Part shown: positions 49,249 through 64,000 of the stretch, piece after piece
Layout: every line of letters begins with the position of its first letter
How positions within the stretch are numbered: position 1 is the stretch's first letter
DNA from: Burkholderiales bacterium Ga0077543
GTDB taxonomy: Bacteria > Pseudomonadota > Gammaproteobacteria > Burkholderiales > Burkholderiaceae_C
Assembly (NCBI GenBank): GCA_001464055.1
Contig: LNET01000063.1
Coordinates: 1-64,000, forward strand
Length of the DNA: 64,000 nucleotides
Direction: 5' to 3'
Translations under genes and position numbers: made by a program
Notes under the pieces: model-generated
The model's input: the letters and a program-made list of their open reading frames with translations, nothing else
The model's database searches: none
Told to the model about the DNA's origin: nothing

Positions 49249-49291
49249 CGACCGATTTCACCCCGAAAACGACCGGGCTACAGTCGCGCGC

Positions 49292-50347
49292 ATGACAAAC
49301 AATCCCATCCTCGTCGAAGTGCTGCGCGGCAGCGCCGTGGAAAGCCTGCACCGCGGCGCCCTGGCCGTGGTCGACGCCAGCGGTGCCCTGCACACCGCGC
49401 TGGGCGACATCGAACGGCCCATCTTCCCGCGCAGCGCGGTCAAGCTGCTGCAGGCGCTGCCGCTGGTGGAAAGCGGCGCGGCCGAGCGCTTCGGCCTGAA
49501 CGACGCGGAACTGGCGCTGGCCTGTGCTTCCCACGGCGGCGAGGCCCAGCACGCGCGCACGGCAGCCAGCATGCTGGCCAAGGCCGGGGTCGACGTGCGG
49601 GCACTGGAATGCGGCGCGCACTGGCCCTACTACGACGGCGCCATCAAGGCCATGGCCGCGGCCGGCGACACGCCTTCGGCGCTGCACAACAACTGCTCGG
49701 GCAAACATGCCGGCTTCGTCTGCCTGGGCTGCCTGATGGCCGACGACCAGGACCGGCGTGCATTCCTGTCGGGCTACGTCAGGCCCGAGCATCCGGTGAT
49801 GCGCGAGGTGACGGCCTCCTTGCAGTCCACCACCGGCTGGAACCTGGCCGCCACGCCCGTGGGCACCGACGGCTGCAGCATTCCCACCTTTGCCATTCCG
49901 CTGCGCCACCTGGCCCTGGCCTTCGCCCGCGCCGGCACAGGCACCGGCCTGCGCCCGGGCCAGGCCAAGGCAGCGAAGCGGCTGCGCGAAGCGGTGGCCC
50001 GCGCCCCCGACATGGTGGCCGGCACGGGCCGCTTCGACAGCAGGGTGATGGCGCACTTCGGTGAACGTGTGTTCTGCAAAGTGGGTGCCGAAGGCGTCTA
50101 TTGCGCCGCCCTGCCCGAGCTGGGGCTGGGCCTGGCCGTCAAGATGGACGACGGCAACACCGCACGCGCCTGCGAAGTGGTGATGGCGGGCCTGATCGAG
50201 GCCCTGCTGCCGCTGGACCAGCCCGACAGCGCGTTCATGGCGAACTTCAGCGGCCCGACGCTGAAGAACTGGAACGGCATCGAAGTGGGCCGCCTTAAGG
50301 CTGCGCAGGCGCTTCGTGCCCTGAAAACGAACGCACCGCAGGCCTGA
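49292..50347 (+). CDS. class 3 (ReAV-type) L-asparaginase
   Basis: A 351-aa enzyme of the Rhizobium etli ReAV class, unrelated in fold to EcAII. The hallmark residues are visible: the Ser-x-x-Lys pair in [12 protein letters not shown], the second Ser in CASHGGE, the zinc-site Cys and Lys in [10 protein letters not shown], and the second Cys in [10 protein letters not shown]. Length and motif order match the class, which resembles class A beta-lactamases and glutaminases in fold. It would release aspartate and ammonia from asparagine in the cytoplasm. It stands alone before lipB. Confidence 0.88.
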
Positions 50348-50406
50348 GCCGGGGCCGCTCCCGGCCGCATGCCGTCTCAGACGGACCCCGTAGACTGTCC
50401 GACCCC

Positions 50407-51066
50407 ATGCGCATCCTCTCCCTGGGCCGTCAGCCCTACACCACGACCGAGCCTGCGATGCGCGCGTTCACGGCCGCGCGCAGCACCGACACCGCAGACG
50501 AACTCTGGCTCGTCGAACACGACCCGGTCTTCACCCAGGGCCTGGCCGGACGCGACGGCCATGTGCTGGCGGCTGGCGACATTCCCGTGGTGCGCACCGA
50601 CCGGGGCGGCCAGGTCACGTACCACGGCCCGGGGCAGGTGGTGGCCTATCCGCTGGTCGACCTGCGGCGCCGCGGCTACTACGTCAAGGAATACGTGTTC
50701 CGCATCGAACAGGCGGTGCTGGACACCCTGGCTCACTTCGGGGTCACCGGCCACCGCGTGCGTGGCGCGCCAGGCATCTACGTGCGGCTGGACGACCCCT
50801 TCGGCCACGGCGTGCTGAAGGTCGACGGCACCGACCCGTTCAGGGGGCTGGGCAAGATTGCCGCACTCGGCATCAAGGTCAGCAACCACCGAACCTATCA
50901 CGGCGTGGCGCTGAACGTGGCCATGGACCTGGGACCCTTCACGCGCATCGACCCCTGTGGCTACGCGGGTCTGAAGACCGTCGATTTCCGGTCCCTGGGC
51001 CTGGCCGTGCCCATGGCCGATGCCGCCACCCGTCTGGCGCTGGCGCTGCAAAGCCGTCTGGACTGA
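50407..51066 (+). CDS. lipB: octanoyl-[ACP]:protein octanoyltransferase
   Basis: A 219-aa enzyme that moves octanoate from acyl carrier protein to lipoyl domains. It has [22 protein letters not shown], the catalytic Lys region [18 protein letters not shown] and the acyl-acceptor Cys in RIDPCGYAG. The standard partner lipA follows 80 bp downstream on the same strand. No DUF493 (YbeD) gene precedes it, unlike many relatives. Confidence 0.95.
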
Positions 51067-51146
51067 CCCGGGGACTGGCGCCGCCAGCGATGCGGATCGG
51101 GGGTAGGTCGGTAAACTCGGGGTTTGCCCTGAACGAGGCTCCCCGC

Positions 51147-52142
51147 ATGAGCAGCCAGCCCACCGCCCCCGCCTACGACGCCACCGCGAAACAGAAGTCG
51201 CAGGCGAAGACGGCGCGCATCCCGATCAAGATCGTGCCGGCCGAAGCCGGGGCCGTGCTGAAGAAGCCGGAGTGGATCCGTGTCAAGGCCGGATCGCCCT
51301 CCACGCGCTTCTACGAGATCAAGCAGATCCTGCGCGAACACAAGCTGCACACGGTGTGCGAGGAAGCCAGCTGCCCGAACATCGGTGAATGTTTCGGCAA
51401 GGGCACCGCCACCTTCATGATCATGGGCGACAAGTGCACGCGCCGCTGCCCCTTCTGCGACGTGGGCCACGGCCGGCCCGACCCGCTGGACACGGACGAG
51501 CCGCTGAACCTGGCCAAGACGATCGCGGCGCTGAAGCTGAAGTACGTGGTCATCACCAGCGTCGACCGCGACGACCTGCGCGACGGCGGCGCCGGCCACT
51601 TCGTCGACTGCATCCGCAAGACGCGCGAGCTGAGCCCGGCCACGCAGATCGAGGTGCTGGTGCCCGACTTCCGCGGCCGCGACGACCGCGCCCTGTCCAT
51701 CCTGCGCGAAGCGCCGCCCGACGTGATGAACCACAACCTGGAAACCATTCCGCGGCTGTACAAGGAAGCGCGGCCGGGTTCGGACTACGCCTTCAGCCTG
51801 AACCTGCTGAAGAAGTTCAAGCAGCAGGTGCCGGGCGTGCCCACCAAGAGCGGCATCATGGTCGGCCTGGGCGAGACCGACGACGAGATCCTGCAGACCA
51901 TGCGCGACATGCGCGCGCACGACATCGACATGCTCACCATCGGCCAGTACCTGGCGCCCAGCGGCCATCACCTGCCGGTGCGCCGCTACGTGCACCCCGA
52001 CACCTTCAAGATGTTCGAACGCGAAGCCCAGGCCATGGGCTTCAGCCACGCCGCGGTGGGTGCGATGGTGCGCAGCAGCTACCACGCCGACCAGCAGGCC
52101 CATGCCGCGGGCGTGGGTATGGCAGAGCAGAAGATAACGTGA
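51147..52142 (+). CDS. lipA: lipoyl synthase
   Basis: A 331-aa radical SAM enzyme that inserts two sulfurs into octanoyl groups. The auxiliary cluster motif is [12 protein letters not shown], the radical SAM motif is [13 protein letters not shown], and the C-terminal substrate region reads [14 protein letters not shown] with the conserved RSSY. The start ATG has GAGG at good spacing. The last codons (MAEQKIT) and the stop lie within the first unit of the hexamer repeats that open the accessory module. Confidence 0.96.
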
Positions 52143-52194
52143 AAATCCAGAAGTAGACGCGAAAAGTCAGAAGAGAAGTCGAGCCTTTCAGAGG
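52121..52194 (+). repeat. CAGAAG iterons at exact 20-bp period, possible transposon-end sites
   Basis: CAGAAG occurs at 52128, 52148 and 52168, exactly 20 bp apart, with a CAGAGG variant at 52189. Units two and three also share the preceding bases (GAAAATC/GAAAAGT). The array begins in the last lipA codons and ends just before the next gene. Repeated 19-22 bp sites are typical of Tn7 and Tn5053/Tn402 ends, whose terminal repeats include a TTTTCAGAAG core. That match is from memory. Confidence 0.5.
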
Positions 52195-52196
52195 TA

Positions 52197-53945
52197 ATGT
52201 CTCTAGGCAGCCGACCCCTCCCCGATTTCAGGATCGCTGTCTTTCCACCCGGCACGGCTACATTGCGAGTCGATTGGTTCGGTTCGATCAGCTTTCCTGA
52301 CCGGTCTACCCGAAGCACGCAGCCTTCTGTTCGTGTCTACTTCTCCGAGGTCGCCGATCCTGAGGCAGGGGTCGATTCCACGCAGCCGGCCCCAGTTGCT
52401 GGCCCCGTTCGAAGGCTTGCACGGCACGTTTCGATTGGCACCACCATGCTTTTGCGCATCGGTGATCTCTGGCGGAACCAAGTTCTGGTCGCCAAGCCCG
52501 TATACGAACTCGAAGAGTTCCGGCACGTGCAGATCGACCGCGACACAGTACAGGTCGTCAAGGCTGGCTCCAGCTTCGACGACGGCAGTTTCCTTCTGCC
52601 ACGCTCCGAACATCCGGGTCACATGGCCAACACGCACTCGTACTGCGTCAAGGTCGCGCTCGACGATGGCCGGCTGCTGGTCATTCCAGCCATGGAACTC
52701 ATCAGGTTCTACTTCGGTTCTTCGAGCAGTCTGCTCGCCACGCTATTCACCACCGGCCTCGATAAGGCGGCGCTGTTTACCTCGGCGCACCTTGAGACGC
52801 GGCCAGGGCTTGCGACCCTTCAACTCGCCCAAGGCATACCTCGCGCCAGCGCGCACGACGTGGCACGCATCGCCTTCGACGACATCGCATGGCGCGCAGC
52901 CGTGTTGATCTCCAGGTCCTGCCTCAGGGCTTCGGTTCGTGGCTCCGAAATCTTTCCGCAGGGCGTGTTTCCCTTCCAAGGGAACACGACGCTGCAGGTC
53001 AAGGGAAAATGGCTGTCGCGCGCAGGTCAACCTCGACAAACGTTTCTTGTCTATGAGATGAGGTCCTGCTCGTTCGCCTTTCCGTACAGCGTCCTCTCAT
53101 ACCGGGTTGCCGGCGGACAGGCCAGTGACACCACCCGAAAGGGCGCAGCCGACGCGACAGACACCAAGCGCAGAGCAGCATCTCGCACCTCCAAACCTCG
53201 GGCGCCCAGCCTGAACGAACACGATGCCTCAAGGCACCTGGCGGCCGACACGGCCTACCTTCCTCAGGTTCCGCGATTCCCTGACCTCACACGCAAGCTG
53301 ACCTTCGGCGACGAGACGGTTGAACAGGAACTGCCACTGGCCGCAGCGGGTACGCCGACTCCCGCCATTGAATCGATGGCCGTCGGAGAAGCCGGATCGA
53401 ATGAGCGCATTCGATCTGTCACGCTGGCCGAGTCCCCAAAGTGGGAGCATGGGCACGCTGCTCCGCAGTACCTCGCGCCGCTCCTCGCCGCACTGGATCG
53501 GTTCGCAGGAGACGTGAAGCTCCTTACGGCAAGCGATCAGGACGGCTGGACTATCCCCGTCAACATGAGTGCTGACGTAGATGGTGTGATCGATGAAGCG
53601 CTGCTGGAGGAGGGGGTCGCACGAAGACTGTGCACCTTCCGCGTGACAGCCGGCATTGCCGATGGGGTGCTGCTGGCGCTTGGCAATGCGCAGGCGCTCT
53701 ACCTGATAGTGCCCATCGACCCAGGTACCGAGATCGTTGACGCATCGCTATATATGCAGAGCGTCATCGATGCAGCGAAGGCGCAGCAGGCGTCGCAGCC
53801 CATGTGTAAGCCTGCCCCGACGGAAGAGCAGTCGCCACCAACTTCAGACGCGCTCGCGGCTTGGCTGGCGCAGTGGGCGCGTGAGGCGCCTGCTGACCTG
53901 AGGCGCTTCGGCCTGCCGCTCGACGGCGACAACGCGGGCGGCTAA
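52197..53945 (+). CDS. uncharacterised protein with TnsE-like patches
   Basis: A 582-aa soluble protein from the ATG at 52197; codon choice is less GC-biased than in neighbouring housekeeping genes. I recognise no complete domain. Two patches resemble Tn7 TnsE in order and spacing: IPAMELIRFYFGSSSSLLAT (about 163-182), where TnsE has a P-x-LELAR-x-LF segment, and LQVKGKW with FLVYEMRSC (about 266-291), like the TnsE LHVKG...YLVEEI segment. A low-complexity linker (about 300-345) joins a C-terminal domain. TnsE directs Tn7 to replication structures via the sliding clamp and DNA 3' ends. It converges with the HTH gene, 13 bp apart. The assignment is tentative. Confidence 0.5.
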   Translation: MSLGSRPLPDFRIAVFPPGTATLRVDWFGSISFPDRSTRSTQPSVRVYFSEVADPEAGVDSTQPAPVAGPVRRLARHVSIGTTMLLRIGDLWRNQVLVAKPVYELEEFRHVQIDRDTVQVVKAGSSFDDGSFLLPRSEHPGHMANTHSYCVKVALDDGRLLVIPAMELIRFYFGSSSSLLATLFTTGLDKAALFTSAHLETRPGLATLQLAQGIPRASAHDVARIAFDDIAWRAAVLISRSCLRASVRGSEIFPQGVFPFQGNTTLQVKGKWLSRAGQPRQTFLVYEMRSCSFAFPYSVLSYRVAGGQASDTTRKGAADATDTKRRAASRTSKPRAPSLNEHDASRHLAADTAYLPQVPRFPDLTRKLTFGDETVEQELPLAAAGTPTPAIESMAVGEAGSNERIRSVTLAESPKWEHGHAAPQYLAPLLAALDRFAGDVKLLTASDQDGWTIPVNMSADVDGVIDEALLEEGVARRLCTFRVTAGIADGVLLALGNAQALYLIVPIDPGTEIVDASLYMQSVIDAAKAQQASQPMCKPAPTEEQSPPTSDALAAWLAQWAREAPADLRRFGLPLDGDNAGG

Positions 53946-53958
53946 CCGTAGGTCCTGC

Positions 53959-54330
53959 TCAGGCGGCCTGGGCGTCCTTGACCTGTGCTTGCCGAATGAC
54001 CGGAGCGAGCGCATTGATGGTGATCGCCAGCAGGCCAATGCCTGCTTCGGTGCCGTCCCAGGCATTGCACAGTGCGCGCAGGATTCTCGGGTCGCTGGTC
54101 ACCCGTTCGCCGCCGTCATTTATGCCATTACATGCATAAACCAAGAACTTCCGCACGTCCGGCGTCAACGACTTGATCCGCCCCGTCAAGAATTTCGAGA
54201 TCGTGTACTGGGCCACGCCAGACAAGCGGGATAGTCCAACCTCGCTGTTGCCTTTGACCGCAAGATAGGTCCGCAATTGGTTGCGAGCCAGGAGCACTTC
54301 TGTCGACACCGGATTTGCTATTCTAGGCAT
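53959..54330 (-). CDS. small helix-turn-helix regulator of the accessory module
   Basis: A 123-aa protein. A lambda-repressor-like helix-turn-helix is visible around residues 31-54 (VGLSRLSGVAQYTISKFLTGR), followed by an alpha-helical tail (FLVYACNGINDGG, GIGLLAITINALAPVI) that may dimerise. Its start is 20 bp from the divergent sce7726-type gene, and an inverted repeat lies between the two starts. A local repressor of the nuclease-like gene, and of itself, is the natural reading. Confidence 0.7.
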   Translation of the reverse strand: MPRIANPVSTEVLLARNQLRTYLAVKGNSEVGLSRLSGVAQYTISKFLTGRIKSLTPDVRKFLVYACNGINDGGERVTSDPRILRALCNAWDGTEAGIGLLAITINALAPVIRQAQVKDAQAA

Positions 54331-54345
54331 ATCGGCATACGATAT
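54329..54345. promoter_or_regulatory. inverted repeat between divergent HTH and sce7726 starts
   Basis: ATATCG, spacer GCATA, CGATAT: perfect 6+6 arms overlapping the HTH start codon by two bases and ending five bases before the ATG of the nuclease-like gene. The gap of 20 bp leaves little room for separate promoters and Shine-Dalgarno sites, so both transcripts may be near-leaderless. It is the likely operator for the HTH protein. Confidence 0.6.
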
Positions 54346-54350
54346 CAGTC

Positions 54351-55034
54351 ATGAGACTGGACAGCAACATGGGGGTCGGCGAGCGCGCGATTCGAGGTGC
54401 TGTCCGGTCCTGGCTGCTGAGAACGGCCGAGCCCGAGGCCTTTGTTCGCGATGAGTTGGCGGTCCGGCCGGCAAGGGTCGATCTCGTCCGTATCGGATCG
54501 CTCCTCGAAGGCTTCGAGATCAAAAGTGACTTTGACAATCTCGATCGTCTGCCCCGACAGGTCGAAGCGTTCAGTAGGCTCTTCGACTCCATGACCGTAG
54601 TAGTCGGTGAGCTGTTCGCACACGAGGTTGCTGGTACTGTGCCGCGTTGGTGGGGAATCAAGGTGGCGAGTAGCGCCAGCGATGGCGAAGTAAGACTGCG
54701 CGTGCTGCGCACCGGCGCGCGGAATCCGAATCAGTCAATCGAAGCCCTTGCGGAGATGCTATGGCGTGCGGAAGCCATGAACGCCCTGCAGGAACTGGCC
54801 GGCATTCAGGCCGCCAAGAGCTGGACTTCAGGGCAAGTGCGAGAGCGGCTTGTAGGGAGCGTCCCGATCGAGGCTCTGCACCGATTCGTCGTCCAGCGTC
54901 TGCGTGATCCATCGCGCATGGATACCTGGCTGCATGAGAGGGCAAAGGAAGCCGCCACCAAGCCTCGGCTGTCTTCATTTCGACGGGCTGCCGATCCGGT
55001 GCCAGCTCGGGCGGGCCGAAGCGCAACGCTCTAA
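54351..55034 (+). CDS. sce7726 family protein, PD-(D/E)xK nuclease-like
   Basis: A 227-aa protein. The sce7726 signature is at residues 35-75: ELAVRPARVDLVRIG, then GFEIKSDFDNLDRLPRQVEA and LFDSMTVVVGE. The spaced Asp44 and Glu56-x-Lys58 form a PD-(D/E)xK-type nuclease motif, the same fold class as TnsA and many restriction enzymes. A helical C-terminal half is unassigned. The start may be the ATG at 54351, with no Shine-Dalgarno sequence, or the ATG at 54369 (MGVGERAIRG). The stop overlaps the convergent tniQ stop. Catalysis is predicted, not shown for this family. Confidence 0.75.
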   Translation: MRLDSNMGVGERAIRGAVRSWLLRTAEPEAFVRDELAVRPARVDLVRIGSLLEGFEIKSDFDNLDRLPRQVEAFSRLFDSMTVVVGELFAHEVAGTVPRWWGIKVASSASDGEVRLRVLRTGARNPNQSIEALAEMLWRAEAMNALQELAGIQAAKSWTSGQVRERLVGSVPIEALHRFVVQRLRDPSRMDTWLHERAKEAATKPRLSSFRRAADPVPARAGRSATL

Positions 55035-56056
55035 GCCAGTCGATCGCGCCACTCGGAGAACTGCTCCGCGATCCCTGTGTACCAGGCCGGTGCTGCGTCG
55101 AATTCCCGCAGCAGGTGGTTGTACCTGATGGCCCGACTCTTCCATGCCTGACGCAGACGTGCCTCTGGATTCACCAGGACCCATGCACCGAACTGCAGGA
55201 GAACGTGTCGAGTCGCTGTCGGCAAAGACTCGATTGCAAGTCGCTTGCCTTGACCGATCGCGAGGTCCTCGACCCCTAAGCGATCTGCAACGAATCCCCG
55301 GAGTTCCACGGTGCGCCGGGCAGACAACATGAGGCGCACGAGGTGTCTAAGCACCACGACCCGGTCAGACGGAAAACTTGCAGACGGGTCGACCGAGACG
55401 GCATCCAGTGAGCTGACCGAGTCCGCAAGCAGGTCGAACGCCGGCTGTTCGAGTATTTGAATCGGCTGGGCCGGCGCGGTAGCCAGATTGAAGCCACATC
55501 GAAAGCACGCGGCCAAGGCACCGTTCTCCGGCACATACGGTCGACCCATGTCCATGCGGTGGAAGGCGACGCCGACTTCGCACTTCGGACAGCGATCCCA
55601 AAGCATGCACTGGTGCCTGAGACATACGGTCTTCAGCGCCACCCGCCACGTCTTGCGGAAGTACGGAATCTCGTCTTCGGCCAGACACCGCGCACAAAAC
55701 TGCTGTGCGTTGCCCATTCTCTGGCGGTGATAGACCTGTGCCGCCAAAACCCAAAGCAGGTTCCCCGACTCCTTGAACTGCGGGTACAGGACTCCTTCGA
55801 ACACACGCAAGGTCGTGCCTTCTGCTCTGGCTCGTGGCGTGCCAGTTCTGGCGATCAGTTCGCGCAGGAGCCATGCGGGTGCGAGCCTGTCGATATCCCG
55901 ATTCCAGACCTGCAGTCGATTGCCGAACAACAGGTTGCAGAAGGTCTGGACCTTGAGTCCGTGCCCATGCGCAAGTCTGACCAACCAGCACGACAGCAAC
56001 TCGTCGTCAAATGGTTTGTATCTTATCGGCCACAACGTCTCTGTGAGCCCTTGCAT
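55031..56056 (-). CDS. tniQ: TniQ family protein
   Basis: A 341-aa protein. The TniQ N-terminal motif is PFDDELLSCWLVRLAHGHGL (about 16-34). Zinc-finger residues follow: C121/C124 (CARC), C145 and H148, C156/C159 (CPKC), then C184/C187 (CFRCG). TniQ/TnsD proteins select the target site in Tn5053-, Tn7- and CRISPR-associated transposons. No transposase or AAA regulator gene is in the window. The gene has no Shine-Dalgarno sequence; its ATG comes 3 nt after the stop of the truncated MerR frame, suggesting re-initiation behind it. The sce7726 gene converges on its 3' end. Confidence 0.85.
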   Translation of the reverse strand: MQGLTETLWPIRYKPFDDELLSCWLVRLAHGHGLKVQTFCNLLFGNRLQVWNRDIDRLAPAWLLRELIARTGTPRARAEGTTLRVFEGVLYPQFKESGNLLWVLAAQVYHRQRMGNAQQFCARCLAEDEIPYFRKTWRVALKTVCLRHQCMLWDRCPKCEVGVAFHRMDMGRPYVPENGALAACFRCGFNLATAPAQPIQILEQPAFDLLADSVSSLDAVSVDPSASFPSDRVVVLRHLVRLMLSARRTVELRGFVADRLGVEDLAIGQGKRLAIESLPTATRHVLLQFGAWVLVNPEARLRQAWKSRAIRYNHLLREFDAAPAWYTGIAEQFSEWRDRLA

Positions 56057-56059
56057 GCT

Positions 56060-56161
56060 TCAGCCGCGGGCATCGATGCCTACGGCATCTAGCGTCGCGC
56101 CGTAAAGGCGGATGGTCTCGACCTGGGTCTGCGCCGCGAGCGCCAGTTCACCGATCTTCAT
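56060..56161 (-). pseudogene. truncated MerR-family metal regulator (CadR/PbrR-like 5' fragment)
   Basis: The ATG at 56159-56161 has a good Shine-Dalgarno (AGGAAAGGA) and encodes MKIGELALAAQTQVETIR, the start of a MerR winged-helix domain of the metal-sensing CadR/PbrR group, which normally goes on YYEREGLL. Here it changes to LYGATLDAVGIDARG and stops after 33 residues. The break at about 56095-56106 is where the accessory module was joined. It no longer encodes a regulator but may provide promoter and leader for tniQ. Confidence 0.8.
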
Positions 56162-56176: not shown

Positions 56177-56515
56177 TCAGGTTGCCGCCCTGGGCTGCAG
56201 GGCAATGATTGCCATGCCGACAAGGCAGATGCCTCCACCGAAAAGGTCCCATCGCGTCGGGACCACACCGTCGACGCGCCACAGCCAGATCAGGGCCACG
56301 ACGACATACACACCGCCGTAGGCCGCATAGGTACGGCCTGCCGCACTGGGATGCAGCGTCAACAACCACGCGAACACCGCGAGCGATGCGGCCGCCGGCA
56401 GCAGCCACCAGACCGGCCGACCTTGCGTGAGCACCAGCCAGGGCAGGTAGCACCCGACGATCTCGGCAACAGCGGTGACGAAGAACAGTCCGGTGACGCG
56501 AAGGAAGTCGAACAT
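56177..56515 (-). CDS. YnfA family membrane protein
   Basis: A 112-aa protein with four hydrophobic helices in the UPF0060/YnfA pattern: [52 protein letters not shown] and [15 protein letters not shown]. These resemble small multidrug-resistance proteins, but YnfA function is not settled. It lies between the MerR-type promoter and the MerR fragment on the minus strand, 15 nt from the fragment, so both were probably transcribed together. Confidence 0.9.
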
Positions 56516-56573
56516 GGATCGAGGCTCTCTACGTTCATGACGGGGGGCGCCCAACACTTTGCAGCATAGCCGC

Positions 56574-56604
56574 TTGACTCTGGAGCCGCTACAGGGTTTC
56601 AAAT
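56574..56604 (+). promoter_or_regulatory. MerR-type promoter and operator upstream of the CDF gene
   Basis: TTGACT (-35, 56574-56579) and TCAAAT (-10, 56599-56604) are separated by 19 bp, the long spacer typical of MerR-activated promoters. The spacer holds a dyad (ACTCTGGAGCCGCTACAGGGT, 21 bp written here as two halves ACTCTGgAG and CTACAGgGT) like CadR/PbrR/ZntR operators. It faces the metal transporter gene. The local MerR gene is truncated, so activation would need a regulator encoded elsewhere. Confidence 0.7.
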
Positions 56605-56631
56605 GCCGGCATCGACACCCGAAAGCACCTC

Positions 56632-57264
56632 ATGAGCGACTCCTGCGGCAGCCACGGCTGCGCCACCCCTGCGGCCAGCCAGAGCCCGCGCTACCGGCGC
56701 GTGCTGTGGGCGGCGCTGATCATCAACCTGGCCATGTTCGGGGTCGAACTGGCCGGTGGCCTGAGCTCGGGATCGGTGTCGCTGCTGGCCGACGCCGTGG
56801 ACTTCTTCGGCGATGCGGCCAACTACGGCATCTCGCTGCTTGTGCTCGGCATGGCGCTGACCTGGCGGGCTCGGGCTGCCCTCTTCAAGGGCCTGACCAT
56901 GGGCGCCTTCGGTATCTTCGTTCTCGGACGCGCCGCCTGGTCGGCCGCTTCCGGCACCGTGCCCGAGCCGGGGACGATGGGCGCCATCGGCGCCCTGGCG
57001 CTGCTGGCCAACGTGTCGGTCGCAGCAATGCTCTACGCTTGGCGCGAGGGTGACGCCAACATGCGCTCGGTGTGGCTGTGCAGCCGCAACGACGCGATCG
57101 GCAACGTGGCGGTGATGGCCGCCGCGCTGGGCGTCTTCGGCACCGGCAGCGGCTGGCCCGACCTGGCGGTCGCTGCAGTCATGGGCGTGCTGGCGCTGAC
57201 CGCTGCGCGCTCGGTCATTCAGCAGGCAAGGGCTGAGCTTCGCCCCGTGCCGGCGCACGCCTGA
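56632..57264 (+). CDS. CDF-type cation transporter
   Basis: A 210-aa inner-membrane protein with about six helices. A His/Cys-rich N-terminus (DSCGSHGCATP) could bind metal. The metal-site helices carry LLADAVDFFGDAANYG and SRNDAIGNVAVMAAA, the D-x3-D arrangement of a divergent cation-diffusion-facilitator branch common near cadR/pbrR genes. There is no large cytoplasmic C-terminal domain. It probably exports Zn, Cd, Co or Pb. The MerR-type promoter lies 28 bp upstream. The transglutaminase-like gene starts 12 nt after its stop. Confidence 0.85.
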   Translation: MSDSCGSHGCATPAASQSPRYRRVLWAALIINLAMFGVELAGGLSSGSVSLLADAVDFFGDAANYGISLLVLGMALTWRARAALFKGLTMGAFGIFVLGRAAWSAASGTVPEPGTMGAIGALALLANVSVAAMLYAWREGDANMRSVWLCSRNDAIGNVAVMAAALGVFGTGSGWPDLAVAAVMGVLALTAARSVIQQARAELRPVPAHA

Positions 57265-57276
57265 CAGGAGCGACCC

Positions 57277-57989
57277 ATGTCCGACGCAATCCAACGCTGC
57301 TGGCCGCGACCCCGCTGCTGAATGTCCACCACCCCGAGATCGAGGCGCTCGTCGCCGCCCGTGGCTGGCGCGCCCTGCGCCCCTACGACCGCATCGGTGC
57401 CGCCTACGACTTCGTCCGCAACGAGGTCACCTTCGGCTACAACGAGGGCGACGAGCTGCCGGCATCCAGCGTGCTGGCCGACAGCATCGGCCAGTGCAAC
57501 ACCAAGAGCACGCTGCTGATGACCTTGCTTCGCGCGGTGGGCATTCCATGCCGCTTCCACGGTTTCACCATCGACAAGGCCTTGCAGAAGGGCGCAATCA
57601 CGGGACTGGCCTACTGGCTGGCGCCGCAGCGCATCATCCACAGCTGGATCGAGGTCAACCTCGAAGGCCGCTGGATCGCGCTGGAAGGCTTCATCCTCGA
57701 TCAGCCGTACCTGGCCAGCCTGCAGCGCCGGTTTCCGCAGGCCCGCCGCTTCTGTGGCTACGGTGCTGCAACGCCCGACCTGTCGGCGCCCGGCGTCGAA
57801 TGGCGGGGCCAGGACACCTATATCCAGAAGGAAGGCATCGCCGACGACTTCGGTGTGTTCGACAGTCCGGACGTCTTCTACGCGCGTCACGGGTCCAATC
57901 TCTCCGGCCTTAAACGCTGGCTGTACCGGGACGCAATCCGGCATGCGATGAACCGCAACGTCGCCTGCATCCGCAAGTCAAAGTGGTGA
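57277..57989 (+). pseudogene. transglutaminase-like cysteine protease family gene, frameshifted near its start
   Basis: The ATG at 57277 has AGGAG seven bases upstream and begins MSDAI, but the frame then diverges. From about 57288 another frame encodes PTLLAATPLLNVHHPEIEAL, DFVRNEVTFGYNEGDELP, the Cys in IGQCNTKSTLL and His in IHSWIEVNLEGRW, ending NVACIRKSKW. The Cys/His residues fit a transglutaminase-like hydrolase. The distance from ATG to stop (713 nt) is not a multiple of three, so a small deletion near 57290 is likely, either real or an assembly error. It is coupled to the CDF transporter upstream. Confidence 0.7.
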
Positions 57990-58053
57990 AAACCAACGAC
58001 CTGCTTGCCTTGCCAGCGCCTGAACAAACCCTGTAGCAGCTAGACTCTCTCCC

Positions 58054-58464
58054 GTGCGTCGTTATCTCGCCATTTTTCTGCTCGCCATGCTTCCGCTCCA
58101 GTTCAGCTGGGCAGCGGTGGCTTCTTATTGCGCGCATGAGAGGCAGGCGAGCACCGGGCCTTTTGGTCACCATGACCACAAGCACTACGCCCACGCCGGC
58201 GGCGATGCCGGGTCGGCTGCAGACGCGGGTGCAGATCTGACTCCTTCTCAGAGCGAGGCAAGTGGCGTCAAGGGCGACAACTTGCCTGGCGCCATGGACC
58301 TGGACTGCGGTCATTGCCACGGCACCTGCAGCGCGATGCTGACATTGCCGATGGGTCTGCCCGGCGCGCTCTCAACCGCGTTGCCCAGCGTCACCCTCAA
58401 GGAGGCGGGTGGTGCACACGCACCAACACGACCCGAACGCCCTCAGTGGTTGCCCCTCGCCTGA
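58054..58464 (+). CDS. czcI: CzcI-like periplasmic metal-resistance protein
   Basis: A 136-aa protein with GTG start and a signal peptide (YLAIFLLAMLPLQFSWAAVAS). Mature metal-binding segments follow: YCAHERQAST, GHHDHKHYAHAG and a central DLDCGHCHGTCSAML. This is the layout of CzcI, a small periplasmic protein encoded in front of czcCBA efflux genes in Cupriavidus and relatives. Here no czcC, czcB or czcA follows, so it is an orphan. A stem-loop at its stop may end the transcript. Confidence 0.8.
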   Translation: MRRYLAIFLLAMLPLQFSWAAVASYCAHERQASTGPFGHHDHKHYAHAGGDAGSAADAGADLTPSQSEASGVKGDNLPGAMDLDCGHCHGTCSAMLTLPMGLPGALSTALPSVTLKEAGGAHAPTRPERPQWLPLA

Positions 58465-58473
58465 TCGGCGAGG
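58455..58473 (+). terminator. stem-loop at the czcI stop codon
   Basis: CCTCGCC (58455-58461), loop TGATC, GGCGAGG (58467-58473), followed by CGGGTCTCTTCCCTTT. The czcI stop is in the loop. Possible terminator, with a pyrimidine-rich rather than pure T tail. Confidence 0.45.
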
Positions 58474-58883
58474 CGGGTCTCTTCCCTTTCTGAAGCCCGT
58501 TCGCGCCTGAGTGCGCGCCGCAGCATGCGGCGCCGTCGGGCACGACGCGACCCCTGTGTCGCCGCTTGCCGATCTCCCGTGAGTTGTTATCAACACTGGA
58601 GCATCGAATGACAGCAACGTATCGAACGACGGACAGGCGGCCAAGCTGCTGCTGCCCCAAACCGGTAGCCGCCGGCAACGCAACCAAAGAGACTCAGGCC
58701 GGGCGAAGCGCCCTCAGCGCGGCAAGTTTGCGCGTCGGATCGCAGCAAAGGCATTGTGCAGAAGCAGAACGACAGCCACCAGCAGCGCCGTTGTCCTCGG
58801 AGGCATGTGGGCGCCGCAAAACGCCAGCGGCGAGGTGGCCCGACAACAGGCCAGGTTCGCCGCCTCCCGAGATCCTCGACCGA
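58465..58883. other. 419-bp stretch without a recognisable gene
   Basis: After the czcI stem-loop I see a GC-rich inverted repeat (GCGCCGCA-type around 58518-58540) and short open frames with no start context, codon bias or recognisable motif on either strand. In relatives czcCBA would begin here, so this is most likely degraded sequence left after loss of the efflux genes. Confidence 0.5.
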
Positions 58884-59219
58884 TCAGCCAGCAGTCGATT
58901 CCAGTCGTGCCCGCCGCGCTTCGGGGGACTCGTTGCGCATCTCGTTGATGACTTCCTGACGCGTCTTGCCCGGACCGGTGCTCTTGACGGGCAGGGGTGC
59001 GTTGCGCTGCATCAGCGCGAGCGTGCCGTCCTTTCGGGCGGCATCGAGTTCAGCCAGCACCTCGGCGCGCGTCTTGCCGTTCTTGGCGTGATCCGGGTGG
59101 TACGTGAATCCGGCTTCGCCGCTGGCAGCGTGGTACAGCGCCGTGGCCTGCGACAAGCCTGGCAGAGCGACGGCGGTGATGACGGCAACGGTAGCGAATG
59201 CAAACTTGAACGAGCTCAT
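58884..59219 (-). CDS. DUF4148 domain-containing exported protein
   Basis: A 111-aa protein with a signal peptide (FAFATVAVITAVALPGLSQATA). The DUF4148 pattern follows twice: GKTRAEVLAELDAARKDGTL and GKTRQEVINEMRNESPEARR. I take the ATG at 59219 because AAGGA lies nine bases before it; an ATG at 59228 is too close to it. Such small periplasmic proteins are abundant in Burkholderiales and often sit beside metal two-component systems. Function unknown. It is divergent from the czcR-like gene. Confidence 0.88.
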   Translation of the reverse strand: MSSFKFAFATVAVITAVALPGLSQATALYHAASGEAGFTYHPDHAKNGKTRAEVLAELDAARKDGTLALMQRNAPLPVKSTGPGKTRQEVINEMRNESPEARRARLESTAG

Positions 59220-59377
59220 GGTGTCCATTCCTTGGTTGGGAAGTTCCCGCAAGCAACCTGCAGCGGGATGCCTGACGGCATGAGCAGTAATCTAAAAATC
59301 GCGCTCCAACAGAGACAGGTCCGGCAGATGACAGTTTGGACAGGTTGTTGGCTGAGCCTCACCAAGGGCTGCGCGCA

Positions 59378-60064
59378 ATGAAGCTGCTGGTGATCGAAGA
59401 CGAGGTCAAGCTGGCCGATTACCTGCGCAAGGGACTGACGGAAGAGGGATTCGTGGTGGACGTTGCGCACAACGGTGTCGACGGCCTTCACCTCGCCATG
59501 GAGTCCGACTACGAGCTGCTGGTGCTGGACGGCATGTTGCCCGGTATTGATGGCCTGAGCCTGCTTACCGCCCTGCGGCAGAGCAAACAGACGCCGGTGC
59601 TGATGTTGACCGCCCGCGTGCGCGTCGAGGATCGGGTGCGTGGCCTGCAGAGCGGTGCTGACGACTACCTCATCAAGCCCTTCGCGTTTTCTGAACTGCT
59701 GGCGCGCATCCAGGGTTTGCTGCGGCGTGCCGGCCCAGCCCGCGCCCCGGGGAGCGCGACTGTTCTCGGGCTGGCGGACCTGGAGATCGACCTCGTACGC
59801 CGCAAAGCGATGCGTGCCGGACGAAGGCTTGACCTGACAGCGCAGGAATTCAGCTTGCTCGCGTTGTTCGTGCGCCGACAGGGCGAAGTGCTGTCGCGCA
59901 CCGAGATCGCCGAGCAGGTGTGGGACATGAATTTCGACAGCGCCACCAACGTCGTCGACGTCGCCATCCGCCGCCTGCGGAGCAAGCTCGACGCGCCCTT
60001 CGAGGGCACCCTGCTCCACACCGTGCGGGGCATGGGTTATGTGCTGGAGGTGCGAAACACATGA
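59378..60064 (+). CDS. czcR: heavy-metal response regulator (CzcR/CopR/IrlR type)
   Basis: A 228-aa OmpR/PhoB-class regulator. The receiver has [11 protein letters not shown], the phospho-acceptor Asp in [14 protein letters not shown], Thr in [12 protein letters not shown] and Lys in YLIKPFAF. The C-terminal winged helix shows [22 protein letters not shown] and [29 protein letters not shown] is typical of the heavy-metal subgroup. The kinase gene overlaps its stop by 4 nt. The gap to DUF4148 contains ATGACAGTTTGGACAG near 59328, only weakly like known CusR/CopR boxes. Confidence 0.92.
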
Positions 60065-61458
60065 GCCGCAGCCGCATAGGGTCGTTGGGGCGCCGGCTGT
60101 CGTACTGGCTGGCCCTGCAGAGCCTCGTGGGTCTGGTCGTGGTCTGTGCAGCGGTGTATGGCGCAACGCACCTGGGCTTCCAGTCCCGTCAGGCGGAGGA
60201 AATGGTGCAAAAGCAGGTGCAGCTCCGACACCTGCTCGCGGAGGCGGCGCGCGATGGTGACGTTGCGACCCTGAAGCACAAGCTCGACGACTTCTTCGTC
60301 GGGCACCCAGACATGGAGCTTGCACTGACCCGGGCGTCTGACGGTTCAGAGTTCTATCGGCGGTCTGCGCCAAGCCCAGCGATCGACCAGCGCGTCGCGC
60401 GTTTCACAGTACCCGCGCCGGCGCCAGCGCAAGGGACACTCGACGCCGTACTGATGCTGGACATTCGGGACGACGCTGCACTGCTGAGTCGTATCGGGTT
60501 CACGCTCGCCTTCGCTGCCCTGGCCGGCACGCTTCTCGTGTCGGCAGGCGGGTTCCTTCTTGTGCGCTTGGGCTTGCGCCCAGTGCGCGACCTGGTGGAT
60601 CAGACCCGCCAACTTGCTGCCGACACGCTGCACAGGCGTCTGGACGGCTCCGCACAGCCTGAGGAACTTGAGCCGCTGATTGCCCAGTTCAACGAGTTGC
60701 TCGGCCGGCTGGAGCTGGCTTACGTGCAAATGGAAGGCTTCAACGCCGATGTGGCCCATGAGCTGTGCACCCCGCTGGCCACACTGATCAGCAGCACCGA
60801 GCTCGCGCTGCGCAAGGCCCGGGATGCCACTGAACTGCGCGAGGTGCTTGGCTCGAATCTGGAGGAGCTTCAACGCGTTGCCAGCATCGTCCACGACATG
60901 CTGTTCCTGTCGCAGGCGGACCGCGGCGTCATCGCACGACGCGTTCCGACCACCAGCCTGGCCGCGTTGGCGCTGCAGGTGTGCAACTACCATGAAGCTG
61001 CGCTCGAGGATGCGGGCCTGGCTCTGGAGATCGTCGGCGACGCCTCAGGCAGCTTCGACACCCCGTTGCTGCAACGGGCACTGTCGAATCTGGTCGGCAA
61101 CGCCACACGCTATGCGCAGCGCGGCTCCACGGTGCGTGTTGAGATCATCCAGTCACCGCCCGGCGAAGTGCAGTTCCGGGTGGTCAATCGCGGCACCGCG
61201 ATCGAGCCCAGTCACCTTCCGCGCTTGTTCGACCGCTTCTATCGCGGCGATCCTTCGCGCAGCCACGCGGATCGCAACCACGGGCTCGGGCTGGCCATCG
61301 TGGCGGCCATCGCGCGCATGCACGGAGGGCGGCCCCTGGCCACATCGGCCGACGGCATCTCTTCAATCGGCATGAGCTTGAAGGACGGGTCGGCAGAGTA
61401 CGAACTTCCGGTGCAAGCCACTCCAGCAGCAACCGTGGGTGTGATGCCTGGGCCTTGA
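60061..61458 (+). CDS. czcS: heavy-metal sensor histidine kinase (CzcS/IrlS type)
   Basis: A 465-aa inner-membrane kinase: first helix at about residues 14-36 ([20 protein letters not shown]), a periplasmic sensor region, second helix at about 140-170 ([20 protein letters not shown]), HAMP, then HisKA with His in [15 protein letters not shown]. The HATPase has [12 protein letters not shown], the FDRFYRGD box and [16 protein letters not shown]. It overlaps the regulator gene (ATGA). It is expected to sense periplasmic Zn, Cd, Co or Cu and control nearby efflux genes. Confidence 0.92.
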
Positions 61459-61522
61459 ACGCCAACGGGCAGATCCTGATTCCCGTGCGACGATGCCCAA
61501 TTTGAACAGGAGTGAGTTAGAC

Positions 61523-62497
61523 GTGAACGTGCAGTTGATCAGGGAGGCGCTTGAGAACCGGCAGATCTTCATCTACTTCGGTGCCGTCGCGGCCGCAGTG
61601 GCCGCGGCCTACGCAGTGCCTGGCACGACGGCACTGGAGATCGTCGTGAACCCGGCCTTGGCGCTGATGCTGTACCTGACGTTCCTGCAGGTGCCGATGC
61701 CGGAACTGAAGCAGGCATTTGGGCAAGTGCGCTTCCTCGGCGCGCTGCTCGTTGCCAATTTCCTGGTCGTGCCGCTTCTCGTGTGGGCGCTCATCCAATT
61801 CCTTCCCGTCGATCCGCTGCTGCGGCTGGGCGTGCTGCTGGTACTGCTCACGCCCTGCATCGACTATGTCGTCACTTTCTCTCACTTGGGGCGTGCCGAC
61901 GCACGTCTGCTGCTGGCCGCAACCCCGATGCTGCTCGTCGCCCAAATGCTGTTGTTGCCGGGGTATCTGGCGGTGTTTCTCGGCGAGGACGCAGCCCGGC
62001 TCGTCAGCATGGGCCCCTTCGTTCACGCCTTCGCATGGCTGATCGTTGCGCCCTTGGTGCTCGCCGCACTGACGCAATTCTGGGCTGCCAGAAGCTCGGT
62101 CGCGTCGCGCGTACTGGTGACGCTCGGGCTGTTGCCAGTCCCGGCAACAGCGTTGGTGCTCTTCGTTGTCGTCGCAGCTGTTTTGCCACAACTTGGGCCG
62201 GCCGCCGGCTCCGTCTGGACAGTGGTGCCCATCTATGTTGCCTTCGCCGTCATCTCACCCGCGCTTGGCTGGCTGGTGGCTCGGTCGTTTCGCCTCGAAG
62301 CTGAAGCCGGGCGATCGGTCGCGTTCAGCACCGGAACGCGGAACTCGCTCGTGGTGCTTCCGCTGGCCTTGGCCGTCCCCGGGGCACTCCCGGTCCTGCC
62401 CGCGGTCATCGTCACCCAGACTCTCGTGGAACTGCTCAGCGAACTGATCTATGTGCGCCTGATCGCAAGGCTGGGTCGCGACTCCTTCCGAGCCTAG
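61523..62497 (+). CDS. arsenic resistance permease (bile acid:sodium symporter/ACR3-like)
   Basis: About 324 aa from the GTG at 61523, which follows AGGAG; the ATG at 61493 would add ten residues. Ten hydrophobic helices are visible, including the BART-superfamily segments LEIVVNPALALMLYLTFLQV, VLLTPCIDYVVTFSHLGRAD with the conserved Cys, and AFSTGTRNSLVVLPLALAVP. The family exports arsenite or antimonite, though some members serve other anions. It lies 64 nt behind the czcS-like gene, so it may share that transcript. Confidence 0.82.
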   Translation: MNVQLIREALENRQIFIYFGAVAAAVAAAYAVPGTTALEIVVNPALALMLYLTFLQVPMPELKQAFGQVRFLGALLVANFLVVPLLVWALIQFLPVDPLLRLGVLLVLLTPCIDYVVTFSHLGRADARLLLAATPMLLVAQMLLLPGYLAVFLGEDAARLVSMGPFVHAFAWLIVAPLVLAALTQFWAARSSVASRVLVTLGLLPVPATALVLFVVVAAVLPQLGPAAGSVWTVVPIYVAFAVISPALGWLVARSFRLEAEAGRSVAFSTGTRNSLVVLPLALAVPGALPVLPAVIVTQTLVELLSELIYVRLIARLGRDSFRA

Positions 62498-62545
62498 CAG
62501 GCGGGGGGTCACGCCTGCGCCAGCGTGAGATCGCCCTCGGGGGTC

Positions 62546-62998
62546 TCAGCACCGAAAGCTGCGCTTGGCAAGCGAGCGCCACCGGCGCTGGCGGTGGCGG
62601 TAGAAGACCTGGGCGAACAGCCAAACCGGCAACGTGAACAGGCCTGCATCGATGGTGACTGTGTCCCGATAGCGGGTGCGCCCGCTGGCCGTGGAGATCG
62701 AGATGGAGTGATCCCAGACCTTGACCAGGGCGCTATGGCCGTTATCGCGCAGAACGAAGCCAGCTGCCGAGTCGGGGTATGAGATCACGATGGCCTGTTT
62801 GCCGAAAGGCACGAAACCGAAAATGCGCACGCCGACCCAGTACGTGCCCTCGGCCCAGATCTGGGGCCAGATGTGCGGTTCGAGCGGTGTGAACTGAACC
62901 AGCGGGTAGGCGACAAAGTTCAGCAGACGCGTAGTCACAGCATGGGTGATCGCGTCATCCATCGAACATTCAAGCTCTGTGGAGATGTCTACTTGCAT
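62546..62998 (-). CDS. SRPBCC-like hypothetical protein
   Basis: A 150-aa protein. The beta-rich pattern (VQFTPLEPHIWPQIWAEGTY, VRIFGFVPFGKQAIVISYP, GHSALVKVWDHSISIS, RYRDTVTIDAG) with a C-terminal amphipathic helix (VWLFAQVFYRHRQRRWRSL) is like SRPBCC/START-type ligand-binding proteins. I cannot name the ligand. Relatives are found near metal and arsenic resistance genes. It converges with the arsenic permease gene. Confidence 0.65.
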   Translation of the reverse strand: MQVDISTELECSMDDAITHAVTTRLLNFVAYPLVQFTPLEPHIWPQIWAEGTYWVGVRIFGFVPFGKQAIVISYPDSAAGFVLRDNGHSALVKVWDHSISISTASGRTRYRDTVTIDAGLFTLPVWLFAQVFYRHRQRRWRSLAKRSFRC

Positions 62999-63110
62999 CT
63001 TGCATTGCTCGGCTTCATGGATCGCGCTGCGCTAGGACCCCAACGCGGTGGAGCTGGCTGCAATGGCCGCGCGAATCAATTTCGATGACGGAGACCAGCC
63101 GGCGCCGGTG

Positions 63111-63470
63111 TCATCGGTCGCGTTCCTCGATCAGCCGTTTGAGTTCAGGCGGGATGGCCATCGGCTTGAAGGCGCTGACATTCGCGCCGCCGGTATTGCC
63201 TATCGGCAGGCGTCCGACCAGATGTCCGATCGGGACCAGTGCGATGCGCAGAACCTGACCGATCACCTCGCGCCAGTCGCCCGCTGACCAGCCCACCCGG
63301 AGCATCTGCCAGTGAACCCGCAGATGCGGCAGGAAGTCAAGCTGGCCGAGCACATGCGCCCGTTCCAGGGCCGCGAACGCGCTCCTGGCGTCGCCCACGG
63401 CCCCGTGCTGCCCGGCTTCTGCCAAGGCCGCCTCGAAGGCCTCGATGCGAGACAGCCCCGTTCTCAACAT
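63111..63470 (-). CDS. DUF3703 family protein
   Basis: A 119-aa protein. The DUF3703 core is complete: SAFAALERAHVLGQLDF, RVHWQMLRVGWSAGDWREVIGQVLRI, then the diagnostic PIGNTGGANVSAFKPMAIPPELK. The family recurs next to metal-efflux genes in Betaproteobacteria but has no known activity. The ATG at 63468-63470 overlaps the stop of the P-type ATPase (TGATG), so it is translated behind the pump. Confidence 0.9.
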   Translation of the reverse strand: MLRTGLSRIEAFEAALAEAGQHGAVGDARSAFAALERAHVLGQLDFLPHLRVHWQMLRVGWSAGDWREVIGQVLRIALVPIGHLVGRLPIGNTGGANVSAFKPMAIPPELKRLIEERDR

Positions 63471-64000
63471 CACTTGCCCTCCCCCTTCTTCAGCAGCCGA
63501 AGACCGTTAGCCACCACCAGCAGGCTGGCGCCCATGTCGGCGAAGATGGCCATCCACATGGTGGCGCTGCCGAACACCGCCAGCACCAGGAACACGGCCT
63601 TGATACCCAGCGCCAGTGTGATGTTCTGCCACAGCACGGCATGTGTGGACCGGGACAGCCGGACGGTCTCTGCGATCCGGCGCAGATCGTCATTCATGAC
63701 CACCACATCCGCGGCCTCCATGGCGGTGTCGGTGCCGGCGGCACCCATCGCCACGCCGATGTCGGCCTGCGCCAGTGCTGGCGCATCGTTGATGCCGTCG
63801 CCGGTCATCGCGGTCAGGCCATGTTGGGCCTGCAACGTCTTGATGGCCTCCAGTTTGTCTTCAGGCAGTAGGTTCCCGCGCGCTTCATCGATGCCGGCTT
63901 CGTGCGCGATGGCCGTCGCTGTCGCCTGGTTGTCGCCGGTCAGCATCACGGGCGTGATGCCCAGGGCTTTGAGCGATGCAACCGCCTCGCGGGACGAGGC
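63470..64000 (-). CDS. heavy-metal translocating P-type ATPase, C-terminal part (gene continues beyond window)
   Basis: The last 176 residues of a P1B-type ATPase; the 5' part lies beyond position 64000. Present are the hinge MLTGDNQATATAIAHEAG, LLPEDKLEAIKTL and the Mg-binding GDGINDAPALAQADIGVAMG. The final two helices keep a Lys in ALGIKAVFL and an Asp in IFADMGASL, the pair that defines Zn/Cd/Pb (ZntA/CadA) specificity. It is an inner-membrane efflux pump. DUF3703 is coupled to its stop. Confidence 0.92.
   Translation of the reverse strand, partial: ASSREAVASLKALGITPVMLTGDNQATATAIAHEAGIDEARGNLLPEDKLEAIKTLQAQHGLTAMTGDGINDAPALAQADIGVAMGAAGTDTAMEAADVVVMNDDLRRIAETVRLSRSTHAVLWQNITLALGIKAVFLVLAVFGSATMWMAIFADMGASLLVVANGLRLLKKGEGK

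What the first reader, a model, noticed from the sequence alone, without database searches (positions are those of the whole stretch)
52121..56106. Compact TniQ + sce7726 nuclease-like + TnsE-like + HTH module without transposase
Four genes alternate in strand in 3.9 kb with almost no free DNA: a 582-aa protein with TnsE-like patches, an HTH protein, a PD-(D/E)xK sce7726 protein and TniQ. TniQ selects targets, TnsE recognises replication structures and TnsA is a PD-(D/E)xK nuclease in Tn7-like systems, yet TnsB and TnsC are missing. Either a Tn7/Tn5053-like element lost its core, or targeting and nuclease parts were reused for something else such as defence. GC drops relative to both flanks, and the module interrupts a merR gene.
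Basis: partly seen in the sequence, partly recalled or inferred. Interest (0 to 1): 0.85.

Follow-up and report, generated by a model that had tools for sequence, protein, structure and literature searches.

The report
Tn7-like transposon end at lipA
The four genes are most likely one end of a large Tn7-like jumping element that landed inside the last codons of the lipoic-acid gene lipA; its cutting and pasting genes appear not to be lost but to lie at the element's other end, on another piece of the same genome.

Summary
The four genes are real and where stated. The main inference, a module without TnsABC, is not supported. In relatives the same TnsE-like gene abuts lipA (28 of 44 named loci), and in complete elements the far end carries TniQ-TnsC-TnsB-TnsA. 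The window's own genome has TnsC, TnsB and TnsA on contig C56. The inverted repeat at C56's outer end matches the one starting at window 52118 (14 of 16 nt), and both are flanked by GGCGTGGG. The module is therefore best read as the lipA-proximal end of one Tn7-like transposon, with TniQ split from tnsCBA by cargo. The 582-aa protein is a divergent TnsE. HTH plus sce7726 is a divergent pair found with and without TnsE: probably cargo. More interesting is the landing site: in 24 of 28 callable elements the end lies 25-29 nt past the same lipA codons, and in 22 of 28 it supplies lipA's stop codon. Four of six relatives tested show 5-bp target duplications. No paper searched names lipA as such a site. 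Known kind, new homing variant.

The parts
51147..52142 (+). lipA (lipoyl synthase); its last 7 codons and stop are supplied by the transposon end
   Evidence: tail [10 protein letters not shown] here against GVGAA* in the joined empty site
52110..52117 (.). 8-bp direct repeat GGCGTGGG flanking the element (other copy at G000:C56:13997-14004)
   Evidence: relatives have 5-bp duplications, so this may be 5 bp plus a 3-bp offset
52118..52197 (.). transposon end: 16-nt terminal repeat TATGGCAGAGCAGAAG and four CAGAAG/CAGAGG repeats at 20, 20 and 21 bp spacing (putative TnsB sites)
   Evidence: matching inverted end on C56, 14 of 16 nt
52197..53945 (+). TnsE-like target selector, 582 aa
   Evidence: A3 profile vs TnsE_C-positive L128: hhalign prob 99.6, E 1.3e-24; L128 passes Pfam TnsE_C; model pLDDT 83.4, pTM 0.86; best Foldseek hits are TnsE C-terminal domains, weak
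53959..54330 (-). HTH protein, divergent partner of sce7726
   Evidence: homologues beside sce7726 in L050 and L056, G172 and G096
54351..55034 (+). sce7726-family protein with a D44...E56-x-K58 motif
   Evidence: NF033832 122.9 bits; D, E and K invariant in 6 of 6 aligned
55031..56056 (-). TniQ, 341 aa, separated here from tnsC
   Evidence: PF06527 E 3.2e-27; 48-53% identical to the TniQ of four lipA elements (G239, G169, G058, L038)
56060..56161 (-). merR 5' fragment (20 MerR-like codons, then 13 others) at the junction between tniQ and the metal cargo
56177..64000 (.). probable cargo: YnfA, CDF transporter, transglutaminase-like, two-component pair (by eye), SBF transporter, DUF3703, P-type ATPase (runs on to contig end 65505)

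Best explanation
The module is the lipA-proximal end of one Tn7-like transposon. SHOWN: a terminal repeat with regularly spaced repeats starts inside the last codons of lipA at 52118; tnsE starts at once behind it; tniQ follows after an HTH/sce7726 pair; tnsC, tnsB and tnsA lie inside a matching end on contig C56 of the same genome. INFERRED: both ends belong to one element, and metal-resistance and other cargo was inserted or rearranged between tniQ and tnsC. Proposed working (inferred from Tn7 and from position): TnsA and TnsB cut and join the ends, TnsC relays the target signal, TniQ homes the element to conserved lipA codons about 26 nt upstream of the insertion point, and TnsE is the second selector (replicating or plasmid DNA, as in Tn7). 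The terminal repeat carries an in-frame stop, so lipA keeps an open frame with a new short tail. HTH/sce7726 is cargo.
For: Four relatives (G239, G099, G190, G058) have TniQ, convergent, 15-38 kb beyond tnsE on the same contig; TnsC-B-A follow TniQ. G000 C56 has TnsA (PF08722, E 7.6e-10), TnsB (Mu-transpos_C; DDE residues kept) and TnsC (TniB, E 1.3e-47), with no TniQ match in the 20 kb of C56 searched; the genome's only other TniQ is a distant one on C93, and it has only one tnsE match. Ends: 14 of 16 nt equal, with GGCGTGGG directly outside both. The joined flanks restore a LipA ending GVGAA*, like native tails of relatives. Relatives: 5-bp duplications in 4 of 6 tested. The insertion point is 26 nt past the SSYHAD codons here and in 14 others of 28 called.
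Against: The gene beside the C56 end (adenosine-deaminase-like, by eye) follows lipA in none of the 31 other loci inspected (L093, L096-L124, L156; L093 and L099 are the same lipA), and no listed row of 349 family genomes spans both flanks (that list is cut), so the empty site was never seen intact. The direct repeat here is 8 bp, not 5, and the terminal triplet is TAT, not TGT. Contigs C63 and C56 are not joined in the assembly (130 contigs, 94.5% complete). Two of six relatives (G058, L038) gave no clear right end, and tnsB is split over frames in G190 and G099. Protein identities do not show when tniQ and tnsC parted.
Confidence: 0.86

Rival explanations
1. Deletion remnant: the lipA element lost tnsABC, and the TnsABC on C56 is a second, unrelated insertion.
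For: tniQ is cut off from tnsC at a merR fragment. 10 of 49 genomes searched have no TnsB match (several are fragmentary), and tnsE is broken or truncated next to lipA in L048, L062, L067, L068 (near a contig edge), L069 and L071, so decay happens in this family.
Against: The C56 end carries the same terminal repeat and the same 8-bp flank, and its flank completes the lipA frame; no TniQ on C56 and no second tnsE in the genome.
Confidence: 0.11
2. Reuse: TnsE, TniQ and the nuclease were co-opted as a stand-alone defence or other module.
For: sce7726 has a PD-(D/E)xK-like motif and matches a PADLOC model named cll (E 6.1e-23); the HTH/sce7726 pair sits beside tnsE in three lipA elements (window, L050, L056).
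Against: TnsABC and both ends are present in the genome; the pair also occurs in G172 and G096, which are not among the 12 of 250 genomes with a TnsE match; the set TnsE-HTH-sce7726-TniQ was seen together only here.
Confidence: 0.03
3. HTH/sce7726 is not neutral cargo but a control or maintenance device of the element (for example a nuclease with its repressor).
For: Two divergent genes with 20 bp between them; three lipA elements carry the pair directly next to tnsE.
Against: The window's sce7726 protein matches only 2 of 44 named loci (a decayed third, L055, was seen by eye); the pair is present elsewhere without TnsE.
Confidence: 0.15

Closest known systems
Tn6022-like Tn7 transposons (Faure et al. 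2023, PMC10293859; passages read)
   Same: tnsE remote from the core genes, on the opposite strand near the far end; divergent TnsE, weakly detected; TniQ, TnsC, TnsB and TnsA together.
   Different: Tn6022 targets comM through TnsF; here the site is the lipA 3' end, and no gene shared between elements was seen beside tniQ (by gene calls, not by a TnsF model).
Canonical Tn7 (glmS attTn7)
   Same: Insertion at a fixed short distance from conserved codons of a housekeeping gene; TGT ends and 5-bp duplication (seen in relatives); TnsA, B, C, TniQ/TnsD and TnsE parts. Tn7 facts partly recalled.
   Different: Tn7 inserts past the glmS stop (recalled) and has tnsD and tnsE in one operon with the core (PMC10293859); here the end lies before the lipA stop in 22 of 28 elements called, and tnsE is at the opposite end.
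BGImetal Tn7-like metal island of Burkholderia (PMC10702557; passages read)
   Same: Tn7-like tnsA-tnsB-tnsC-tniQ with heavy-metal cargo.
   Different: tnsE and lipA do not occur in its main text.
sce7726/beta-protein pairs
   Same: sce7726 family protein (NF033832).
   Different: On an E. coli plasmid sce7726 is convergent with a beta family protein; here its neighbours are a divergent HTH gene and, by position only, tniQ.

Membership tests
Tn7-like transposon | TnsB DDE transposase | tested here: met
   C56 TnsB 649 aa, E 7.2e-248 to the family profile; D, D, E kept in 10 of 10 aligned. Not in the window.
Tn7-like transposon | TnsC AAA+ regulator and TnsA endonuclease | tested here: met
   TniB E 1.3e-47 and TnsA-like N E 7.6e-10 on C56. 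Not in the window.
Tn7-like transposon | TniQ/TnsD | tested here: met
   PF06527 E 3.2e-27 in the window
Tn7-like transposon | TGT...ACA inverted ends with repeated TnsB sites and 5-bp duplication | tested here: inconclusive
   Relatives: 5-bp duplication with TGT at both ends in 3 of 6 (G239, G099, G169), TGT/TGA in a fourth (G190), none clear in 2. Window element: repeated sites and matching ends, but TAT and an 8-bp repeat.
TnsE family | Pfam TnsE_C match | tested here: not met
   No TnsE_C match in 37 of 37 sequences of A3 at E up to 1, nor by PF18623 in G000
TnsE family | homology to a recognised TnsE and TnsE-like C-terminal fold | tested here: met
   hhalign to L128 prob 99.6; not significant to Tn7-type TnsE L127 directly; Foldseek: 7 of the top 10 rows are TnsE chains, but best E 0.45 and none below 0.001
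Tn6022-like | remote tnsE on the opposite strand near the other end | tested here: met
Tn6022-like | insertion in comM | tested here: not met
   Site is lipA
Tn6022-like | TnsF gene; place in the TnsC tree | not tested
   No TnsF model was searched and no tree with published clades was built
PD-(D/E)xK nuclease | D...ExK motif on the nuclease fold | tested here: inconclusive
   Motif invariant in 6 of 6; single-sequence model unusable, pLDDT 39.7
CRISPR-associated transposon | Cas effector genes in the element | not tested
   No cas search was run

The most novel reading that the evidence does not exclude
A widespread Tn7-like lineage of Burkholderiales uses the 3' coding end of lipA as a dedicated homing site: TniQ alone (no TnsD-like extension, no TnsF) reads the conserved SSYHAD codons and places the element a fixed 26 nt or so downstream, inside the reading frame, and the terminal inverted repeat has evolved to be translated, giving the enzyme a new tail and stop codon.
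Probability: 0.5. Interest if true: 0.6.

Novelty: new variant of a known kind. Interest (0 to 1): 0.45.

Why it matters
It corrects a tempting misreading (a Tn7 module without transposase) and shows a homing site inside the coding end of a housekeeping gene, where the transposon end doubles as coding sequence. If a 341-aa TniQ reads lipA without TnsF or a TnsD extension, it is a small, testable target selector for insertion next to a conserved gene.

Tried and rejected
Pfam, NCBIfam, PADLOC and PHROGs scans do not name the 582-aa protein. The PDB profile search gave 3-isopropylmalate dehydrogenase (best E 0.0013) and RhoGDI, over 60-70 residues, judged chance. In viral contigs 7 stretches matched the TnsE patterns and none encodes a relative; sce7726 has two weak viral relatives. 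Plasmids: three records with 26% identity over 38% of the TnsE-like protein, not informative. My first two gene-calling scripts mis-called strands in GC-rich DNA and were replaced; gene calls remain approximate. I first took the site for a lipA-ptsI gap, because ptsI follows in several relatives; in G000 ptsI lies on another contig, so this was dropped for G000. The intact empty site was looked for and not found; the one listed row that ran well past the junction (G034) was fetched and holds lipA but no neighbour match. The end-finding pattern was widened after (23 of 38 rows called, 19 with the stop inside the end) to give; it was built from ends already seen, so it cannot count as an independent test. 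The structure of sce7726 without an alignment was unusable, so no fold search was run on it. The HTH has no plasmid match.
Full report
OBSERVATION. The four ORFs are present at the stated place and strand: 52197-53945 + (582 aa), 53959-54330 - (123 aa), 54351-55034 + (227 aa), 55031-56056 - (341 aa). TniQ (PF06527, E 3.2e-27) and sce7726 (NF033832, 122.9 bits, cut-off 70) are certain. The 582-aa protein has no family match. GC is 0.609 in 52118-56056, 0.693 in the 10 kb to the left and 0.651 to the right.

THE 582-AA PROTEIN IS A DIVERGENT TnsE. A profile of 37 sequences (A3) aligns with L128, a protein whose gene passes the Pfam TnsE_C cut-off (49.3 bits, cut-off 26.7), with hhalign probability 99.6 and E 1.3e-24 over 409 columns. 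It does not align significantly with the Tn7-type TnsE of L127 (185.6 bits to TnsE_C); only a 16-column stretch, IPxxEL.R..F, is shown, at probability 0.3. The AlphaFold model is good (pLDDT 83.4, pTM 0.86). Its best Foldseek matches in the PDB are TnsE C-terminal domains (7 of the top 10 rows: 5d17, 9d5l, 5d16), but weakly: best E 0.45, target-normalised TM about 0.4-0.5, no match below 0.001. Faure et al. 2023 (PMC10293859, passages read) describe such remote TnsE in Tn6022-like elements, on the opposite strand, near the left end and far from the core genes.

WHERE IT LIVES. Of 250 genomes of the same family, 12 have a match to the protein, 9 of them with E below 1e-99. Of the 10 strong loci, 7 have lipA upstream on the same strand: five directly adjacent (window, L020, L021, L023, L026) and two at 1.9 and 5.8 kb (L024, L025); three (L018, L019, L022) have none in the stretch held. 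In the named collection 44 loci were found: lipA is adjacent upstream in 28, 2.8 and 5.8 kb upstream in 2, inverted in 1, not in the stretch held in 12, and 1 starts at a contig edge.

THE CORE GENES ARE AT THE OTHER END. TniQ lies 15-38 kb beyond tnsE, convergent, on the same contig in G239, G099, G190 and G058. Behind it in all four come TnsC, TnsB and TnsA, on the minus strand; tnsB is split over frames in G190 and G099, so those copies may be dead. Eight of the 44 named loci hold the whole core within the stretch fetched; three Ralstonia ones are compact, tnsE to tnsA in about 6 kb, with no lipA in the stretch held. With a TnsB profile, 39 of 49 genomes searched have a match. The window's genome is one: contig C56, 11288-13207, minus strand, E 7.2e-248. 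C56 holds TnsC (TniB E 1.3e-47), TnsB (Mu-transpos_C; D, D, E kept in 10 of 10 aligned) and TnsA (E 7.6e-10), followed by a gene that looks like adenosine deaminase (by eye). No TniQ matches the 20 kb of C56 searched, and the genome has only one other TniQ, a distant one on C93. So the window holds tnsE and tniQ, and C56 holds tnsC, tnsB and tnsA.

ONE ELEMENT. Outer ends, read inwards: window TATGGCAGAGCAGAAG, C56 TATGGCAAAGCAGGAG (14 of 16 equal). Directly outside both stands GGCGTGGG: window 52110-52117, C56 13997-14004. Joining the flanks gives a LipA ending GVGAA*, whose stop overlaps the ATG of the next gene; native tails of relatives look alike (for example GVAAA*, GVVGA*). In relatives, 5-bp duplications flank ends that begin TGT or TGA in G239 (ATTGC, 11 of 16 end letters equal), G099 (GTGGC, 9 of 16), G169 (GTGAC, 13 of 16) and G190 (GTCTG, 10 of 16), and none was clear in G058 and L038: 4 of 6. 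For the window element the direct repeat is 8 bp and the ends begin TAT; a 5-bp duplication with a 3-bp offset at one end is equally possible. Against: the lipA/C56-neighbour junction was not seen in the listed matches of 349 family genomes (list cut) or in the loci inspected, and the same-genus genome G195 has another gene after lipA, so the empty site is inferred.

THE JUNCTION. On the minus strand tniQ is preceded by a 33-codon frame whose first 20 residues are MerR-like (80% identical to the MerR of L082). In relatives with a readable junction TnsC ends within about 30 bases of tniQ. Thus something broke the tnsC-tniQ link. The metal cargo (YnfA, CDF, SBF transporter, DUF3703, P-type ATPase; two-component pair by eye) starts at tniQ and runs to the contig end. 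Whether this was an insertion or a rearrangement is open.

HTH AND sce7726. The pair is divergent. In Variovorax L050 and L056 the same pair, inverted, sits next to tnsE after lipA; L055 seems to have a decayed sce7726 (by eye). The HTH proteins are 33 and 30% identical to the window's. In 250 family genomes sce7726 passes its cut-off in 6; in three of these (G000, G172, G096) an HTH match lies divergently beside it, and G172 and G096 are not among the TnsE-positive genomes. It is a two-gene unit that turns up in several places, here most likely cargo. Its motif D44...E56-x-K58 is invariant in 6 of 6 sequences, consistent with a PD-(D/E)xK nuclease, but no fold evidence was obtained.

THE LANDING SITE. 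I located the element end at lipA in 28 of 35 loci (7 gave no call; 3 duplicates were dropped, with a pattern widened). The distance from the SSYHAD codons to the end has a median of 26 nt; 15 of 28 are exactly 26 (the window among them), 24 of 28 lie within 25-29, and the range is 23-45. In 22 of 28 the lipA stop codon lies inside the transposon end, often as T-GTN-NNN-NNN-NCG-AAG-TAA: the terminal repeat is read through and ends LipA. In the window LipA ends MAEQKIT*, encoded by the element. The end then shows CAGAAG or CAGAGG at 11, 31, 51 and 72 of the 80 bp before tnsE, the likely TnsB sites. That TniQ reads the lipA codons is inference, by analogy with TnsD on glmS (recalled).

LITERATURE. 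Full-text searches joining Tn7-like or TnsE/TniQ with lipA, lipoyl synthase, attachment site or genomic island gave no paper on this site. Passages of PMC10293859, PMC8649781 and PMC10702557 were read; none has lipA in the main text. The listed papers counted for 'lipa' were opened by word search: PMC9837825 and PMC10763512 mean lipase, and the held first part of PMC12857756 has no lipA. Supplementary tables could not be read, so an att-site list there may include lipA. For sce7726 only a listing of four papers was seen.

VERDICT. Not a transposase-less module: most likely one end of a rearranged Tn7-like transposon. A known kind; the lipA in-frame homing is the new part.

Noticed in passing
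G000:C93 about 48,500-54,400 (L030 8551-14366): A second, unrelated transposition gene set in the same genome: a TniQ domain in a 560-aa frame, with proteins behind it that match TnsC (22%) and TnsB (23%) weakly.
   Followed up: partly
L019 8838-10553 (G058): A second full-length tnsE-like gene in G058 with no lipA in the 20 kb held; it may have moved without the rest of the element.
   Followed up: no
L033, L034, L037: Compact Ralstonia elements (tnsE to tnsA in about 6 kb, hardly any cargo) with no lipA in the stretch held; their target site was not determined.
   Followed up: no
L016, L017 11734-12732: A hypothetical protein with weak similarity to the TnsE-like protein, on Enterobacter and Pantoea plasmids beside recombinase, methylase and IS21 genes.
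   Followed up: no
L129 2510-4145: On an E. coli plasmid, sce7726 and a beta family protein are convergent and overlap at their ends, much as sce7726 and tniQ do in the window.
   Followed up: partly
L025 3864-8725: Four gene calls lie between lipA and tnsE in G239: cargo can also enter on the lipA side of tnsE.
   Followed up: no
L048, L062, L067, L068, L069, L071, L029: Broken or truncated tnsE next to lipA: decayed relics of the same elements are common (L068 lies near a contig edge).
   Followed up: partly
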